Part shown: in pieces, positions 36,390-49,105 of the stretch
How the letters are laid out: every line of letters begins with the position of its first letter
Position numbering within the stretch: position 1 is the first letter of the stretch
Assembly (NCBI RefSeq): GCF_024385525.1
Contig: NZ_JANFLU010000011.1
Span: 124,001-188,000 of the forward strand
DNA length: 64,000 nucleotides
DNA from: Arthrobacter sp. zg-Y238
GTDB lineage: Bacteria > Actinomycetota > Actinomycetes > Actinomycetales > Micrococcaceae
Direction of reading: 5' to 3'
Notes under the pieces: model-generated
The model's input: the letters and a program-made list of their open reading frames with translations, nothing else
What the model was told of the DNA's origin: nothing
The model's database searches: none
Translations under genes and position numbers: made by a program

Positions 36390-36426
36390 GACGGCGATCC
36401 CCACCGGCCGCGAAAGGGATGAGCAC

Positions 36427-37737
36427 ATGGACGAGCAGCCGTCTGATTCGCCAAAGGAACGTTCGGAGGCCCCGGGGGAGTCCGGAGGAGCATCCGGGGA
36501 GCCCGCCGCCGCAGGCGCTTCAGCGGCATCCGGACGCAGACCGCGTAGGAAAGTTGATCCCAAACGGTCCGCCATCCTCGGGGCCATGTTCCTTATGGCC
36601 ACCAGTGCGATCGGGCCTGGCTTCATCACCCAGACCACCGTATTTACCGTCCAGCTCGGTGCTGCCTTTGCCTTCGCCATCCTGGTGTCCATTCTGGTGG
36701 ACATTGCCGTCCAGCTGAATGTCTGGCGGATTGTCGGTATTTCCGGGCTCCGCGCCCAGGTGCTGGGAAACAAGGTGCTTCCCGGTGCGGGACTGGTGCT
36801 GGCGATCCTGGTGTTCATCGGCGGCCTTGTCTTCAACGTAGGCAACGTGGCCGGGACCGGACTGGGACTGAACGCCATGCTTGGTCTGGATCCGAAGATC
36901 GGGTCCGCGATATCCGCCGTGCTGGCGATTCTGATCTTTCTTTCGAAACGGGCCGGCCTGGCACTGGACCGGGTGGTGGTGGTCCTTGGCGCCCTGATGA
37001 TCCTGCTGATGCTTTACGTGGCCATCGTTGCCAACCCGCCCGTCGGCAGTGCCCTGAAGAACACGGTCCTGCCGGAGCAGGTGGATTTCCTGGCCATCAC
37101 CACCCTGATCGGCGGGACGGTGGGCGGCTACATCACCTACGCCGGGGCTCACCGGATGGTCGACTCGGGAAACTCGGGCCTGGAGAATATCCGCCCCATC
37201 ACCCGTGCTGCCCTCTTAGGCGTGATCGTCACCGGAGTGATGCGGGTATTGCTGTTCCTGGCCGTTCTGGGAGTGGTTGCCGGGGGAGCAGTGCTGAGCG
37301 GAGAGAATCTGGCTGCCGATGCCTTCCGGATAGCGGCGGGCGAAGTGGGAATCCGGCTCTTCGGGATCGTTTTCTGGGCCGCCGCCCTGACCTCGGTGAT
37401 CGGCGCTTCCTACACTTCGGTTTCGTTCATCACCAAGCTCTCCGGCAGCGACCGGGTTCGAAACCTGCTTACGGTTGCCTTCATTGCCGTGTGCGCGGCG
37501 GCCTACCTCCTGCTGGGCCAGCCGCCCCAGACCTTGCTGGTCTTTGCCGGGGCTTTCAACGGGCTCATTCTGCCGCTCGGATTCGCCATCCTGCTCTGGG
37601 CTGCCTGGCGGCGGAGTGACCTCCTGTCCGGGTACCGGTATCCGCGTTGGCTGCTTGCCGTCGGTGTCGTGGCCTGGCTGCTGACCCTGTATCTGGGGTG
37701 GAATTCGCTTGCCGGCCTGCAGGCCTTGTGGGCGTAG
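36427..37737 (+). CDS. NRAMP-related transporter of the pxp locus, copy 1
   Basis: About 436 residues with some 11 membrane helices after a 45-residue hydrophilic Ser/Gly/Ala leader. The sequence is NRAMP-related (YcsG-like), but helix 1 reads [15 protein letters not shown] where true metal transporters have DPGN, so the Asp and Asn metal ligands are absent. In Bacillus subtilis the equivalent ycsG lies with ycsF, ycsI and kipIA, matching the neighbourhood here. A role in uptake of 5-oxoproline or a related acid rather than Mn/Fe is inferred. It is strongly similar to the next gene (tandem duplication). ATG 36427 is preceded by AAAGGG. Confidence 0.85.
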   Translation: MDEQPSDSPKERSEAPGESGGASGEPAAAGASAASGRRPRRKVDPKRSAILGAMFLMATSAIGPGFITQTTVFTVQLGAAFAFAILVSILVDIAVQLNVWRIVGISGLRAQVLGNKVLPGAGLVLAILVFIGGLVFNVGNVAGTGLGLNAMLGLDPKIGSAISAVLAILIFLSKRAGLALDRVVVVLGALMILLMLYVAIVANPPVGSALKNTVLPEQVDFLAITTLIGGTVGGYITYAGAHRMVDSGNSGLENIRPITRAALLGVIVTGVMRVLLFLAVLGVVAGGAVLSGENLAADAFRIAAGEVGIRLFGIVFWAAALTSVIGASYTSVSFITKLSGSDRVRNLLTVAFIAVCAAAYLLLGQPPQTLLVFAGAFNGLILPLGFAILLWAAWRRSDLLSGYRYPRWLLAVGVVAWLLTLYLGWNSLAGLQALWA

Positions 37738-37775
37738 CCGGACCGCCCCGGCGAGCAGTCAGTTAACAATCGCAG

Positions 37776-37812
37776 GATCGTTCAACAAAACTCTTGTGGA
37801 TTGTTCAACAAC
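37776..37812. promoter_or_regulatory. Two GATTGTTCAACAA operator sites
   Basis: GATCGTTCAACAA (37776-37788) and GATTGTTCAACAAC (37799-37812), centres 23 bp apart, about two helical turns. The second differs by one base from the perfect palindrome GATTGTTCAACAATC in front of pxpA. They overlap the promoter of the second NRAMP-like gene and are the likely target of the GntR/FCD regulator at 43957-44622. Confidence 0.65.
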
Positions 37813-37821
37813 CCTTAGACT
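37794..37821 (+). promoter_or_regulatory. Putative promoter of the second NRAMP-like gene
   Basis: TTGTGG (37794-37799), a 16-bp spacer, then TAGACT (37816-37821). The spacer is occupied by the second operator copy, consistent with repression. Confidence 0.45.
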
Positions 37822-37871
37822 GCTGGAAGCCCCTGTGGCGCGCCCCACACCTCCCAGCGAACGGAATCACC

Positions 37872-39089
37872 ATGGACAGCACGCCTACCAAGGTAAAGGT
37901 CCGGCCCAAGGCCAAGCGCACGGCCTTGCTCGGTGCCATGTTCCTGATGGCCACCAGTGCCATTGGCCCCGGCTTCATCACGCAGACCACGGTCTTCACC
38001 GTCCAGCTCGGTGCTGCCTTTGCCTTCGCCATCCTGGTGTCGATTCTGGTGGACATTGCCGTCCAGTTGAACGTCTGGCGGATCATCGGTGTCTCCGGCC
38101 TGCGGGCCCAGGTTTTGGGCAACAAGGTCCTGCCGGGAGCCGGCTGGGTCCTCGCGGGACTGGTCTTCCTGGGCGGGCTGGTCTTCAACATCGGCAACAT
38201 TGCCGGCACCGGCCTGGGGCTGAACGCCATGCTGGGCCTGGACACCAAGATCGGCGGGGCCATCTCTGCCGGCGTCGCCATCTTCATCTTCCTGTCCAAA
38301 AAGGCCGGACTGGCCCTGGACCGGATTGTCGTGGCACTGGGCGCGCTGATGATCCTGCTTATGCTCTACGTAGCCGTCAGCGCAGCGCCGCCGGTGGGTG
38401 AGGCGCTGAAGAACACGGTCCTGCCCGAGCAGGTCGACTTCCTGACCATCACCACCCTGATCGGCGGCACCGTGGGCGGGTACATCACTTACGCCGGCGC
38501 GCACCGGCTGCTGGATTCGGGCACCACCGGTCCCGGATATGTCAAGGACATCACCAAGGTCTCGATGCTCGGCATCATTGTCACCGGCGTCATGCGTGCC
38601 CTGCTGTTCCTGGCCATCCTCGGCGTAGTGGCCGGCGGGGTTACCCTGGCAGGCGACAACCTGGCCGCCGACGCGTTCCGGCACGCCGCCGGCGAGATCG
38701 GGTTGCGGATATTCGGCATCGTGTTCTGGGCGGCGGCCCTGACCTCGGTGATCGGCGCGGCCTACACCTCGGTGTCCTTCGTTACGACGCCGGCCACCAA
38801 GGACCGCACGCGCAGCTGGATCACCGTCGGGTTCATTGCGTTCTGCACCGTGGTGTATCTGTTCCTAGGCCAGGCACCGCAGACCCTGCTGGTCTTCGCC
38901 GGGGCGTTCAACGGGTTGATTCTTCCGCTGGGCTTCGGCATCCTGCTCTGGGCGGCCTGGCGGCGCCGGGATCTGCTGCAGGGCTACGAATACCCCAAAT
39001 GGCTGCTTATCATCGGTGTGCTGGCGTGGGCGCTGACCCTCTTCCTGGGCTGGAACTCCCTCTCCGGGCTCGCCGCACTCTGGCAGTAG
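37872..39089 (+). CDS. NRAMP-related transporter of the pxp locus, copy 2
   Basis: About 405 residues and about 11 helices, without the long N-terminal leader of copy 1. Most of the sequence is identical or similar to copy 1 ([44 protein letters not shown]), and helix 1 again has IGPGFITQ instead of DPGN. ATG 37872 is the natural start ([16 protein letters not shown]). Unlike copy 1, its promoter carries the shared operator, so it is probably the copy controlled with pxpA. DUF1445 follows 29 bases later and is likely co-transcribed. Confidence 0.86.
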
Positions 39090-39118
39090 CGGTCCCTTTC
39101 GGAAAGGTTGAAGCGACT

Positions 39119-39955
39119 ATGGAAAACCTAGCTGATGCCCCCGCCGCAGGCCCGGCCCAGGATCCTGCAGCCTTGAACCCGGCCGGACTGTCACCGGCCG
39201 CAGCCCGGGCGCTGTTCCGGGACGGACTGGTCACCCCGACGGCGGGCTGGTCTGCCGGCTACGCGCAGGCCAACCTGATCATCGTGCCCAAGGCGCAGGC
39301 CTTCGATGTCCTGCTGTTCGCCCAGCGCAACCCGAAGTCCTGTCCCATCCTGGGCGTGCTCGACGCCGGGGAAACCGCCGGGCCGCTGCTGGCCGGCGGC
39401 GACATCCGCACCGACGTACCCCGCTACACCGTGTACGAAGACGGTGTGAAGGTCGCTGACCCCACGGACATCAGCGGATACTGGCGCGATGACCTGGTGA
39501 CCTTCATTGTCGGCTGCAGTTTTACCTTCGAGGCGGCCCTGCAGGAGGGCGGCATCCGGATCGCGCACATTGACCAGGGCACCAACGTGCCGATGTACCG
39601 CACCTGGGTCCGCTGCGAGCCGGCCGGGGCCATGGCCGGGCCGCTGGTGGTCTCGATGCGCCCCGTGCCGGCCTCACAGGTGGCCGACGCCGTGCGGATC
39701 ACCTCCCGCTACCCGGCGGTGCACGGCGCTCCCGTGCACGTGGGTAACCCGGCGGAGATCGGCATTACGGATCTGGGCCGGCCCGACTTCGGTGAGCCGG
39801 TGCGGATTGCCGACGGGTACGTGCCAGTGTTCTGGGCCTGCGGCGTGACCCCGCAGGCGGCGGTCATGGAGTCGAAGCCGGCGCTGGCCATCGGCCACGC
39901 GCCGGGGCACATGCTTATCACCGATGCGCGGGACAGTTCCTACCTGGTGCCGTAA
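39119..39955 (+). CDS. DUF1445 (YcsI-like) putative hydro-lyase
   Basis: A 278-residue DUF1445 protein: [43 protein letters not shown], then [18 protein letters not shown] and a final [11 protein letters not shown]. The family is annotated as putative hydro-lyase (D-glutamate cyclase-like) and is a standard companion of PxpABC/5-oxoprolinase genes. It may convert D-glutamate and 5-oxo-D-proline, but this is by family context. ATG 39119 has GGAAAGG upstream. It ends 38 bases before the convergent KAP gene. Confidence 0.87.
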
Positions 39956-39993
39956 CTGCGTTGGATACCGAGTGACGAAGTCATGGGTCTAAC

Positions 39994-42900
39994 TTAGGGT
40001 GTCGTGTAGTTCAGTCGCTTTCTTTTGTTTATCTTCCCCTTCAAGGAGATCGAGTATCCGAGTTGAGACAAGACTCGAAGAGCATTGTTTTCGAGTGATT
40101 CATTCTTTTCCACCGCTGATTTCACCCGTTCGCCCAGCGCTCCCTTAACACCGTGGGGCAAAGGTCTGCCGAGATTGCTGAGTGCGCTGAGGGCGAGGTC
40201 CACCGCACTCACGTTACTGGCACCTGCTATATGGAGATCGAGAAGGCCATAAACGACCGTCTCAATCAGCCTTTTTCGCGATGCGGCATCCCGAATTACG
40301 GCCTTCGCCCATAGGTCGATTACAGCCTTACGTTGACTGTTGTTCGTTGTTTGGGAGAAGCGGCGACATAGGAGGTCCGCTGCTACTTCGTCATCGGCGG
40401 AGGTAAAACCGATCGTCGTCAGTACCAGATCTGCAGGAATTTGAGAATCGGCAGGTGCCAGGTACATGTCCAACAGTGCTCTCCTTTGGTCGGCGGTCCA
40501 AAGAATTTGTGCTTCTCGTGCAGCACTGGCGAACTCGTCTGTCAGCACATCTTCAGCCATCAGCCGATTTAGGATGGGTAGAAAGTCGTCGAGGCTGGGC
40601 TTTACCAAGTCTACCCACATGGTCGCTGCAGAAACGGCGTCGCCTGCATAGTTATAGACGATAGAGGCAACTTCCTGTGCCGTAGGAATTGCAGTCAAAT
40701 CAGCTATGGCTTTTCGGCTGCTTTTGGCTAGGAGGAGGGTAACTTCCACATGTTCCACCTCTCCCAGCCACGGGCTCTCCGCCGCTTCGGTCAGGATACT
40801 TTTGAGCTGTTGTTCGCTGACTGAATTAGCGGAGATATCTAGAGCTGCACAGCCATCAACGACGACATACTGAAATAGCGCGTCGTCGCGGTCCGCCAAG
40901 ACATGTGTTTGAGCAAGAGTGTCCTGAAGCGTCGAAACGACTGCATCGGCAACGCGCGGGGCATCAACGAAATCGGCATTAATGAACCCTGCCGTGTGAC
41001 TCAGGAGTGTGCGACGGGCTGATGCATCGTCCTCATCGACGACCGCTGGGGCGAGTTTTTCGAGAACATCGTCAGTAAGGGTGGGTCGCGTATCCTTCGG
41101 GAGGACGTCGACGAGCTTTCGCAGGGCCGTGAAAGTTCCCTCTGCGACTGTGATGGACGGGTCGTTCCACAACTTGGTCAGCAGTCGGCGGAGCAGCTTC
41201 CCGTGGGCCGGGTCGATAGCATTTGGGGATACTCCTTCCAACCAGGTCGGCCATTCAGAGAGTGTCCGGCGGTGGACTGCCTCGAGCATCAGTCCGGCCA
41301 CCTCAGGCGCCCTTACAGGCTCGGTCTGACTGATGAGTCTCAGCGCAGCAGCCCGGCCCGCCTGAGTATCCACCTCAAGTAGGAGCCGAAGGGTCTCGTG
41401 CTGTATGGGAGTCTCCCGATTACCGGCTGCTTCCACGAGGGCAGAGAGGAGGATCTCCGGATTATATGGCTCATCATCACTGGACGTTGACGCGGATGCT
41501 TGAGCCGCACCGCGCGTCCGTGTTGCTACAGATGTGGCGGGTTCCCCTGTGTCCGTCCACGCGGCATGTGTTTTTACGGCGGCTCTAATACCTACGGCCA
41601 GCGTTGTCCGAAGTATTGCGAGTATCTGCACCACATCTTCATCGTTGGTTGCGAAAAGATGACGAAGCGCCTCGTCGCCATCCTCGGAAACCAGCAGCGA
41701 CCCCAAGTACGCTTTTACCTCAGCAGGTTTCAACTCAAGAGCAGTCAAGGCATCCCGTAGTAGGAAATCCGGGGCCGTGCTAGAGGGCGAAGAGATTGCT
41801 GTAGTGATTACACGGTCACGAAGCGCTGACGCTCCAGCCTCGTTTCCACCTGCAGCGAGGTCCCACGCTGTAGCGATGGTATCAGCATCAAGAACACTCC
41901 CGTCGTTGTCCTCGTGAATTAAACAGATAGCTTCAATGACGGAATCGATAACGCGATCAACATTCAGGTCAGGCACAGCTTTCCTAAGAAGCAGGAAAGA
42001 GCGAGCCGTGTTCGGCCCGGTAATTCCGTTTCCGGTTCGTATTTGTTGGGACAGGAGTTCTAGAACTCCGCCAATTTGTTGATCGTTGAGCTCGTCAATA
42101 CGTTGCTTGATGGTGTCGATATCGATATCCTCTGCAGCCCGCTCGATAGCCAAGGCTAGGTCCCCATCGAGCCCGAAGATCGTCCCGGTGCTCTGCATGT
42201 AGATCAGATGACGTGAAGGCCCCTGTACTTGGCGGGTGCGGCGCAGGTAATTCAGCAGCTGTTTGTTATGCGCCCTAGCTGTTGGTGATGCCTCATTGAC
42301 AACAAGAGAATCTTCCTTTTCCTGATCTGAAAATTCAGTAGATGCGACCGAATCTTCATCGTCATTCAGGAGGGTTGCTGGCGAAGCCCCTTCGAGCGCA
42401 TAGCCGTGCGCTAATTGGTGCACTCGCTCCGACACACTTGACGGTAAATTGGATTTTGGTTCTTGGACCAGCTGGAGAACTAGGTTCGGAAGGTTCGCAT
42501 CTACTTCCAGATGGCGTGAGAAAAGCGGGAACTCGACCCGTAAGCAAGCCAATTTTGCTAACGCTGCGGCACTGTTGCCAGGGCTTTCTGCGAGCAAGCC
42601 GGCACCATGCCGCTCCTCTGCAAGACGGTAGGTGAGTGCGAAAGTGTTTAGCAGGTGTTTGACGCGGCGGGGACTTGTCACGTGGGTGGGGATGAGCACA
42701 GAGAGTACATACTCCAGATTGATTTCACCCCATACTCCCGCACGCCCCTCAACGAGCGTGTGCGCGTAGTTGCTGATGCTTTGGGCCATGAGCGGCGGAA
42801 GACTGACTTGGTACTGAAATACCTTGTCAAGGTAGGCGCTGCCAGTGCTGTAGTACGGGTTAGCATCGTTCGTCGGCGTTTCTTGTTTAGCGGCCTGGGT

Positions 42901-43737
42901 GAGCGCTTCTTCCAAGACGTTCTGATCTGCAGCGATGACGAAAACGCAGCCATCGATACCGAGAAACGTACGAACCGTGTCCAACGTCGCTACCACCTCC
43001 GTGGCAGAGCAACGATCTAGCTCATCAATGAAAACAACCAACCTCTTCGCGCGAGTGTCCCTTACAAGGTCACGGAAGAGCTGTTCGAACTGCTCGTCGC
43101 TTTCCGGCTTCGCTAGACTCCGATCGACGCTCAGTGTCTTGCTAGCCAAGGCGATCAATGCCGCGAGGAGCGAGGCGGGAAGGAGTCCCGCTTTCATAGC
43201 CTGCGCCATAAGCGATCCGAACGACGGCCACAATTCCCCCTGTTGTAATGCAGCTACACCAATAAGGATCGTGCTCAGGATTAGGGTTAGACCACCCATG
43301 AGAAGCGTGAAAGCTCCAAGCAGTCTGAAAACGGTGGCCGGGGGGACGCTGATGTCCGTCTTGGTTCGCCCGCTGTAGAGGTCGGCGTGGTATCGCACGT
43401 TTTGTTGGCCCAAGCCTTCGGCCACTGCGCTTATGAAATTCCGACGTAGGGGTACGTCAGCATATTTGAATGCGTCAAATCGAACGAATCTGATACCGTC
43501 CACACGGTCAATTTTCGACCTTAGCAAGTTTGCGATACCCGTCTTGCCCGAGCCCCAAGGGCCATAAAGTGCAATGTTGGAAGGTGTGTTCACCGACTTC
43601 ACTAAGGCAGCCAGCTGATTAACGATGCCCTCATGCGCGAGTCGATCATCCGTCGCTGCGGCAAGTTCGCGGTCCTCGATTAAATCGTCCCGGTGAAGAG
43701 CCGTCCCCCGGACCACGTCATTAGCACACCTTGACAT
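39994..43737 (-). CDS. KAP-family P-loop NTPase with membrane hairpin and large C-terminal domain
   Basis: About 1247 residues. With the start at ATG 43737, Walker A GPWGSGKT is at residues 59-66, two hydrophobic segments (about 136-164 and 180-202) interrupt the NTPase domain, and Walker B VVFIDELDRC is near 233-243. This is the diagnostic KAP layout, in which membrane helices are inserted between Walker A and B. The remaining 900 residues are a long, probably helical-repeat region of unknown fold. F-plasmid PifA, a phage T7 exclusion protein, is a KAP NTPase, so phage defence is a reasonable hypothesis. The gene is visibly lower in GC and uses AT-ending codons, unlike its neighbours, and splits a pxp locus. 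GGGGGTG upstream supports ATG 43737; 43752 and 43785 are alternatives. Confidence 0.88.
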   Translation of the reverse strand: MSRCANDVVRGTALHRDDLIEDRELAAATDDRLAHEGIVNQLAALVKSVNTPSNIALYGPWGSGKTGIANLLRSKIDRVDGIRFVRFDAFKYADVPLRRNFISAVAEGLGQQNVRYHADLYSGRTKTDISVPPATVFRLLGAFTLLMGGLTLILSTILIGVAALQQGELWPSFGSLMAQAMKAGLLPASLLAALIALASKTLSVDRSLAKPESDEQFEQLFRDLVRDTRAKRLVVFIDELDRCSATEVVATLDTVRTFLGIDGCVFVIAADQNVLEEALTQAAKQETPTNDANPYYSTGSAYLDKVFQYQVSLPPLMAQSISNYAHTLVEGRAGVWGEINLEYVLSVLIPTHVTSPRRVKHLLNTFALTYRLAEERHGAGLLAESPGNSAAALAKLACLRVEFPLFSRHLEVDANLPNLVLQLVQEPKSNLPSSVSERVHQLAHGYALEGASPATLLNDDEDSVASTEFSDQEKEDSLVVNEASPTARAHNKQLLNYLRRTRQVQGPSRHLIYMQSTGTIFGLDGDLALAIERAAEDIDIDTIKQRIDELNDQQIGGVLELLSQQIRTGNGITGPNTARSFLLLRKAVPDLNVDRVIDSVIEAICLIHEDNDGSVLDADTIATAWDLAAGGNEAGASALRDRVITTAISSPSSTAPDFLLRDALTALELKPAEVKAYLGSLLVSEDGDEALRHLFATNDEDVVQILAILRTTLAVGIRAAVKTHAAWTDTGEPATSVATRTRGAAQASASTSSDDEPYNPEILLSALVEAAGNRETPIQHETLRLLLEVDTQAGRAAALRLISQTEPVRAPEVAGLMLEAVHRRTLSEWPTWLEGVSPNAIDPAHGKLLRRLLTKLWNDPSITVAEGTFTALRKLVDVLPKDTRPTLTDDVLEKLAPAVVDEDDASARRTLLSHTAGFINADFVDAPRVADAVVSTLQDTLAQTHVLADRDDALFQYVVVDGCAALDISANSVSEQQLKSILTEAAESPWLGEVEHVEVTLLLAKSSRKAIADLTAIPTAQEVASIVYNYAGDAVSAATMWVDLVKPSLDDFLPILNRLMAEDVLTDEFASAAREAQILWTADQRRALLDMYLAPADSQIPADLVLTTIGFTSADDEVAADLLCRRFSQTTNNSQRKAVIDLWAKAVIRDAASRKRLIETVVYGLLDLHIAGASNVSAVDLALSALSNLGRPLPHGVKGALGERVKSAVEKNESLENNALRVLSQLGYSISLKGKINKRKRLNYTTP

Positions 43738-43956
43738 CCAGCACACCCCCATAAATCGATCGTGAGGCATCGCCTCCCGAAGCAATCATGTCTTACGTCT
43801 TGATTTACGGCCTCGATCCGTGCGCTCGTGTCGCATGGCCATTTCGGGGTCGTAGGAGAAGCGGATTACGGATGGATGCAGCTCGGCGCGTTGTTTTAAC
43901 ACGAAGGTATTAGTCGAATAGGCCACCCGTGGATAGCCATAATCACGAGCCTGCGG

Positions 43957-49034: not shown

Positions 49035-49090
49035 GGTCCTGCCTCCCGCTTCTTGTGCAATGTGTTCCTACAGTGTGCCCGGTCACGTCG

Positions 49091-49105
49091 GATTGTTCAA
49101 CAATC
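49091..49105. promoter_or_regulatory. Operator palindrome GATTGTTCAACAATC of pxpA
   Basis: A perfect palindrome with 7-bp arms around a central C, 57 bases before the pxpA start. The same core occurs twice before the second NRAMP-like gene, 11 kb away across the KAP insertion, tying both arms of the locus to one regulator, probably the GntR/FCD protein. Confidence 0.7.

What the first reader, a model, noticed from the sequence alone, without database searches (positions are those of the whole stretch)
39956..43956. Single-gene KAP NTPase islet splitting a pxp locus
One 3.7-kb gene with visibly lower GC and AT-ending codons sits between DUF1445 and the GntR regulator, while everything on both sides belongs to one 5-oxoproline locus sharing one operator. 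The protein has the KAP layout: Walker A, a two-helix membrane hairpin, Walker B with DELDRC, then about 900 residues of unknown fold. KAP NTPases include the F-plasmid phage-exclusion protein PifA, and defence genes often arrive as single inserts in metabolic neighbourhoods. The 900-residue C-terminal region could be a new sensor or effector module. No integrase or flanking duplication was seen.
Basis: partly seen in the sequence, partly recalled or inferred. Interest (0 to 1): 0.7.

Follow-up and report, generated by a model that had tools for sequence, protein, structure and literature searches.

The report
Recently inserted single-gene KAP NTPase
One foreign gene, missing from a sister strain at exactly this spot, encodes a membrane-anchored ATP-driven protein with a long helical tail that most likely senses phage infection; related single-gene phage defences are known, so it is a new variant rather than a new kind.

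Summary
A 1263-codon gene of atypical composition (GC3 0.572 against 0.797 ± 0.046 in 46 other window ORFs) lies between D-glutamate cyclase (DUF1445) and gntR. A genome of the same species lacks it: the flanks are 98.4% and 99.0% identical, and 8 bp stand where this window has 3,997 bp. None of 28 other congeners held has the gene.

It is a true KAP NTPase with two membrane helices inserted in the NTPase domain. Sixteen long relatives, this one included, were found scattered through Actinomycetota. Two others (after aconitase, in two bacterial families) also have empty sites. The closest (62%) lies near a pSAM2-like integrase/RepSA set. Some others lie beside restriction-modification or CBASS genes, but a crude control did not show enrichment.

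The C-terminal ~870 residues are predicted as a HEAT/ARM-like helical solenoid. The NTPase model is closest to RdrA of RADAR.

Most likely it is a Tmn/PifA-like single-gene defence: the solenoid senses, the NTPase forms a ring, and the membrane hairpins depolarise the cell. Acquisition is shown; defence is inferred; the membrane mechanism is a hypothesis.

The parts
39957..43953 (.). inserted segment (3,997 bp) that stands in place of 8 bp in the same-species genome G099
   Evidence: Flank alignments to L026 end at 39956 and restart at 43954
39994..43737 (-). KAP NTPase gene, likely start ATG at 43737 (1247 codons); the ORF extends to TTG 43785 (1263 codons)
   Evidence: Pfam KAP_NTPase 130 bits
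43543..43563 (-). Walker A, GPWGSGK (residues 75-81)
   Evidence: core invariant in 14 of 14
43135..43341 (-). two-helix membrane hairpin inserted in the NTPase domain (about residues 149-217)
   Evidence: AlphaFold2 helices 120-151 and 156-188 of the model, offset 29; two hydrophobic peaks in 14 of 14 sequences
43009..43032 (-). Walker B, FIDELDRC (residues 252-259)
39997..42603 (-). C-terminal, almost wholly helical solenoid (residues 395-1263), presumed sensor
   Evidence: AlphaFold2 mean pLDDT 84.9, pTM 0.56; HEAT/ARM-type matches
43738..43953 (-). upstream region of the KAP gene inside the insert; no sigma-70-like site found
38999..39955 (+). D-glutamate cyclase (DUF1445), left flank
   Evidence: PF07286 220 bits
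43957..44622 (-). GntR/FCD regulator, right flank, convergent with the left flank
   Evidence: PF00392 and PF07729
37798..37811 (.). operator-like GGATTGTTCAACAA before the second Nramp gene (near copy at 37775)
49090..49103 (.). exact copy of the operator-like 14-mer before ycsF

Best explanation
A single-gene cargo of the KAP NTPase superfamily, recently acquired by this strain through horizontal transfer and fixed in the convergent gap between the D-glutamate cyclase gene and gntR (shown by the empty site and composition). It most likely works as a stand-alone anti-phage or anti-plasmid system comparable in design to Tmn and PifA (inferred). Proposed mechanism: the long C-terminal helical solenoid binds an invader product; this allows ATP-dependent ring assembly of the Orc/Cdc6- and RdrA-like NTPase domain; the two membrane helices inserted in each NTPase domain are thereby gathered in the inner membrane and open or depolarise it, stopping the infected cell. 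Shown: acquisition, KAP domain, intact Walker motifs, hydrophobic hairpin, less conserved C-terminus. Predicted by model: solenoid and RdrA-like NTPase. Inferred only: sensing, ring formation, membrane effect, defence.
For: Empty site in the same species, flanks 98.4% and 99.0% identical; gene absent from 28 of 28 other congeners; foreign composition.

The same gene type is in three demonstrably polymorphic sites: this one, acn-GNAT in G044 against its congener G111, and acn-map in Brachybacterium.

Closest relative (62%) is near a tyrosine integrase, RepSA and a GntR/UTRA regulator, with a tRNA-Pro. Another long relative is on a mobilizable Dietzia plasmid, directly after a type IIG restriction-modification gene. 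Others lie next to a XhoI-type R-M pair (L047) or about 4 kb from a CBASS cyclase and E1-E2 pair with a weak integrase match on the other side (L048).

Passages read: Tmn is a KAP NTPase with two transmembrane domains that blocks phages (PMC11846954, passages and Discussion). PifA was suggested to sense phage proteins and kill by membrane depolarisation (PMC8594841). QatA appears to assemble as a heptamer or octamer (PMC13279940). RdrA is a heptamer whose four-helix insertion forms a crown on the ring (PMC9994260).
Against: No functional data exist. The window's own near neighbours scanned are metabolic genes.

In a crude control, PADLOC models at 1e-20 matched both the family flanks (127 ORFs; 14 models, which I assign to five proteins) and random regions of host genomes (113 ORFs; 16 models, seven of them BrxHI or DruE helicase types). 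Neighbour counts therefore do not prove enrichment. Gene sets of known systems were seen in 2 of 13 flanks (L047, L048).

Confidence: 0.5

Rival explanations
1. An acquired accessory gene without an immune role: a KAP NTPase that tethers or remodels membrane complexes or acts in signalling, kept by chance or for a niche function.
For: The neighbours here are a 5-oxoproline locus. Some relatives sit beside ordinary genes such as acn, dxs and dnaB. No functional test exists.
Against: Patchy distribution: 2 of 395 family genomes, 4 of 396 order genomes, 3 of 394 class genomes, own genome included each time. Carriage near an integrase/RepSA set and on a plasmid, and beside R-M or CBASS genes in some relatives.
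Confidence: 0.25
2. The same defence role by another effector step: the ring acts on nucleic acid or a host protein, and the membrane helices only anchor it.
For: RdrA, the nearest solved fold, works with a deaminase partner (PMC9994260); QatA binds DNA (PMC13279940). Tmn escape mutants map to a DNA-modification gene (PMC11846954).
Against: A single gene stands alone here, and no partner gene common to the relatives was noticed in their flanks. The membrane hairpin is kept in 14 of 14 sequences.
Confidence: 0.2
3. An ancestral gene of the genus, lost repeatedly, not an insertion.
For: Related genes occur in other families of the same order.
Against: Absent from 28 of 28 congeners; tight gap in 9 of 11 fetched congener loci; foreign codon use; best relative in another family.
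Confidence: 0.03
4. The segment is itself a self-moving unit with a cryptic end-recognition mechanism.
For: Two bacterial families of one order carry it just after aconitase. A 5-bp CTGCG lies at both ends here.
Against: No recombinase inside. Upstream and downstream DNA of six loci share nothing at E 0.01 beyond a 14-bp leader match of two; no inverted repeat joins the ends among the pairs listed. The gap itself also received unrelated genes in another congener.
Confidence: 0.04

Closest known systems
Tmn (TmnA), single-gene phage defence of Escherichia coli and others
   Same: KAP-family NTPase with two transmembrane segments (PMC11846954, passages and Discussion); single gene (recalled from the description of tmn)
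   Different: No Tmn sequence was at hand, so homology outside the NTPase was not tested; the relatives found here are from Actinomycetota
PifA of the F plasmid
   Same: KAP NTPase domain; PADLOC PifA 64 bits
   Different: Best stretch covers only 141-318 of the 720-position model; this protein is much longer. The genome's other KAP gene (691 aa) is the closer PifA relative at 254 bits
QatA of the QatABCD system
   Same: KAP NTPase domain; NCBIfam QatA 98.7 bits
   Different: Far under the curated cut-off of 600 bits; flanking genes scanned are not qatBCD
RdrA of RADAR
   Different: RdrA's insertion is a four-helix crown in the passages read, not a membrane hairpin; no RdrB gene in the flanks scanned; sequence identity 13%
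PDC-S20, candidate single-gene defence in PADLOC-DB
   Same: KAP NTPase part, up to 60.8 bits
   Different: Models are 446-464 positions long, so without the long solenoid

Membership tests
KAP NTPase family (PF07693) | score above Pfam's gathering cut-off | tested here: met
   130 bits against 20
KAP NTPase family (PF07693) | Walker A and Walker B intact | tested here: met
   Cores invariant in 14 of 14 aligned sequences
[quoted passage not shown]
   Two hydrophobic peaks between Walker A and B in 14 of 14; two long helices in the model
Tmn | KAP NTPase with two membrane segments in one stand-alone gene | tested here: met
   against the description in PMC11846954
Tmn | homology to TmnA along the whole protein | not tested
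   No Tmn sequence was found or fetched; no PADLOC hit named Tmn
Tmn | inhibits phage growth | not testable with these tools
   needs plating assays
PifA | match to the PifA model along most of its length | tested here: not met
   64.1 bits, best stretch 141-318 of 720
QatA | NCBIfam equivalog cut-off | tested here: not met
   98.7 bits against 600
RADAR RdrA | RdrA-like NTPase fold | tested here: inconclusive
RADAR RdrA | adjacent rdrB deaminase gene | tested here: not met
   Adjacent genes are the D-glutamate cyclase and GntR genes

The most novel reading that the evidence does not exclude
A one-polypeptide bacterial 'membrane resistosome': a HEAT-like sensor controls ring assembly of an RdrA-like NTPase whose inserted hairpins, at what looks like the place of RdrA's crown insertion (from the text of that paper, not from a superposition), line up as a multi-helix membrane pore. 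The gene travels as bare single-gene cargo into gaps after or between ordinary chromosomal genes without a recombinase of its own.
Probability: 0.15. Interest if true: 0.75.

Novelty: new variant of a known kind. Interest (0 to 1): 0.45.

Why it matters
KAP NTPases such as Tmn and PifA block phages, yet the 2025 Tmn paper calls its mechanism unexplored (PMC11846954). A family that is present or absent between strains of one species at a defined site gives a natural pair for a clean test. The combination of a predicted solenoid sensor, an RdrA-like NTPase and a built-in membrane hairpin makes the ring-and-pore idea directly testable with one gene. None of the four protein-family libraries scanned (Pfam, NCBIfam 20.0, PADLOC-DB 2.0.0, PHROGs) gave a model that covers this protein along its length, so surveys that rest on such models may miss it.

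Tried and rejected
Searches for viral carriers: no match in 50,697 phage records at 1e-5; 46 IMG/VR stretches matched a pattern, none encoded a relative. Plasmids: 113 records at 1e-5, none covering 80% of the query in one place. The Dietzia plasmid protein proved a relative over nearly its whole length only by profile.

Solved-structure search by family profile: no hit up to E 0.01.

Neighbour enrichment: PADLOC scan of 127 flank ORFs (7 kb each side, 13 loci) and 113 control ORFs from 10 random 17-kb windows. Of 22 windows drawn, 20 were fetched and 10 used; one very long control ORF (L114) was left out. Three host genomes had no control window because their contigs were short or not chosen. 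Both sets gave hits, so enrichment was not claimed. The ORFs came from a simple GC3-based chooser, not a gene finder; some are spurious. The tool gives hits per model, so which protein each hit belongs to is my assignment, for four of the five.

Promoter scan: 0 sigma-70-like sites, shuffles gave a mean of 2.1. tRNA proximity: ARAGORN hits lie in L043, L047, L048, L079 and L163, and one without a named amino acid in L037; no control was made, so it is not used as evidence.

Mycobacterium locus: none of the 29 other dnaB loci held encodes the gene within about 1.5 kb downstream, but the downstream neighbour could not be matched, so no empty site is claimed. Brachybacterium: loci were held for 20 genomes of 30 searched; 3 of the 19 others show the map gene next to acn by DNA match, and 16 gave no match in the DNA held and are uninformative.

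A conserved end sequence for a mobile unit was looked for and not found.

Papers: the founding KAP paper and the paper that described tmn are not held; their content is recalled or taken from citations.
Full report
OBSERVATION. The ORF at 39994-43785 (-) encodes 1263 residues; leader DNA shared by three relatives points to ATG 43737 as the start. In 500-bp steps GC is 0.63-0.68 over the 3 kb to the left, 0.67-0.73 over the 4 kb to the right and 0.53-0.61 across the gene. GC3 is 0.572 against 0.797 ± 0.046, minimum 0.710, in 46 other window ORFs, and the codon index 0.39 is the lowest of 47; the ORF set was picked by a rule that favours high GC3. Pfam names KAP_NTPase at 130 bits over residues 54-388; the flanks are D-glutamate cyclase (DUF1445) and a GntR/FCD regulator. 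The operator-like GGATTGTTCAACAA precedes the second Nramp gene and ycsF exactly, and was not found before the KAP gene.

EMPTY SITE. A second genome of the same species, G099, has the D-glutamate cyclase and gntR genes next to each other. Alignment of the flanks stops at 39956 and restarts at 43954; between them G099 has 8 bp and this window 3,997 bp. Flank identity is 98.4% and 99.0%, with no burst of differences at the junctions. The gene is absent from 27 congeners and from G099, which with this genome make up the 29 held for the genus. Eleven congener loci with a gntR orthologue were fetched. In 9 the two genes are adjacent with a gap of at most about 216 bp. One (G010) carries a TetR and an alpha/beta hydrolase gene in the gap. 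One (G004) shows no cyclase or Nramp gene in the 17 kb fetched and has a 616-residue hydrolase there. The gap therefore takes up other genes as well.

FAMILY. With this gene, G599 (62% identical) and G459, G1394 and a Dietzia plasmid protein that makes 16. The G1394 protein is 1252 aa, but its profile match ends at position 978. G1490 has the same coordinates as the Brachybacterium genome and was counted once. The gene is rare: 2 of 395 family genomes, 4 of 396 order genomes, 3 of 394 class genomes, own genome included each time. The part from residue 462 on, searched alone, was found in 1 of 396 phylum genomes, the own one. In 10 of 10 host genomes checked there is one match.

OTHER SITES. 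In G044 the gene lies between aconitase and a GNAT gene; the congener G111 has the two adjacent, and the left boundary falls just after a hairpin-like stretch behind aconitase. None of 24 other acn loci held has the gene in the roughly 1.5 kb downstream. In Brachybacterium it again follows aconitase; three of 19 other loci show acn next to the map gene and none shows the KAP gene. The closest relative lies near a tyrosine integrase, a pSAM2-type RepSA, a GntR/UTRA regulator and tRNA-Pro. On the Dietzia plasmid it follows a type IIG restriction-modification gene, 1069 bits. In Streptomyces altiplanensis it neighbours a XhoI-type nuclease and a methylase; in Microbacterium a CBASS cyclase and E1-E2 protein lie about 4 kb away. 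Counter-result: PADLOC models also match random control regions, so the flanks do not prove enrichment.

MECHANISM. Passages read: Tmn is a KAP NTPase with two membrane domains that blocks several phages, mechanism unexplored (PMC11846954). PifA was suggested to sense phage proteins and depolarise the membrane, though the same authors ask whether it evolved for immunity (PMC8594841). QatA appears as a heptamer or octamer and binds DNA (PMC13279940). RdrA is a heptamer with a four-helix insertion crowning the ring (PMC9994260). From these I infer: solenoid binds a trigger, NTPase rings form, hairpins gather in the membrane, the cell is depolarised. Only the gene's acquisition and anatomy are shown.

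STATUS. It is a KAP NTPase by every feature tested. It is not a PifA or QatA by the models tested. Whether it is a Tmn could not be tested for lack of a Tmn sequence. No paper on this particular family was recognised in the listings of the searches made; most listed papers were not opened.

Noticed in passing
L082:6112-8187 (-), genome place about G000:C5:84111-86186: A second KAP gene in the same genome, 691 aa, matches the PADLOC PifA model almost full length (254 bits); a PIN_8 gene lies beside it, GC about 0.57.
   Followed up: partly
L031:7933-9446 and L030:7533-9383: The same D-glutamate cyclase/gntR gap holds other genes in two congeners: TetR plus alpha/beta hydrolase in G010, and an Abhydrolase_8 protein in G004, where no cyclase or Nramp gene was seen in the 17 kb fetched.
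   Followed up: partly
L049:8001-8114: Cellulomonas hominis carries only an N-terminal remnant of the KAP gene, ending near Walker A.
   Followed up: no
L042:1642-2844 and L045:351-1544: Two Streptomyces relatives have two similar small genes directly upstream of the KAP gene (by eye; one with a weak Phd/YefM match), a possible partner cassette.
   Followed up: no
window 36418-39089: Two tandem Nramp-like transporter genes whose products match each other at about 74-79% identity in the congener loci; the pair is seen in 6 of the 11 congener loci.
   Followed up: no
L036:7737-8392: The gntR orthologue of G013 is split into two frames.
   Followed up: no
L044:12453-13757, L079:12234-12941, L038:14977-15798: Further flank genes of relatives with conflict-type Pfam domains: SLFN_AlbA_2, MrcB_N and a zeta-toxin-like protein.
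   Followed up: no
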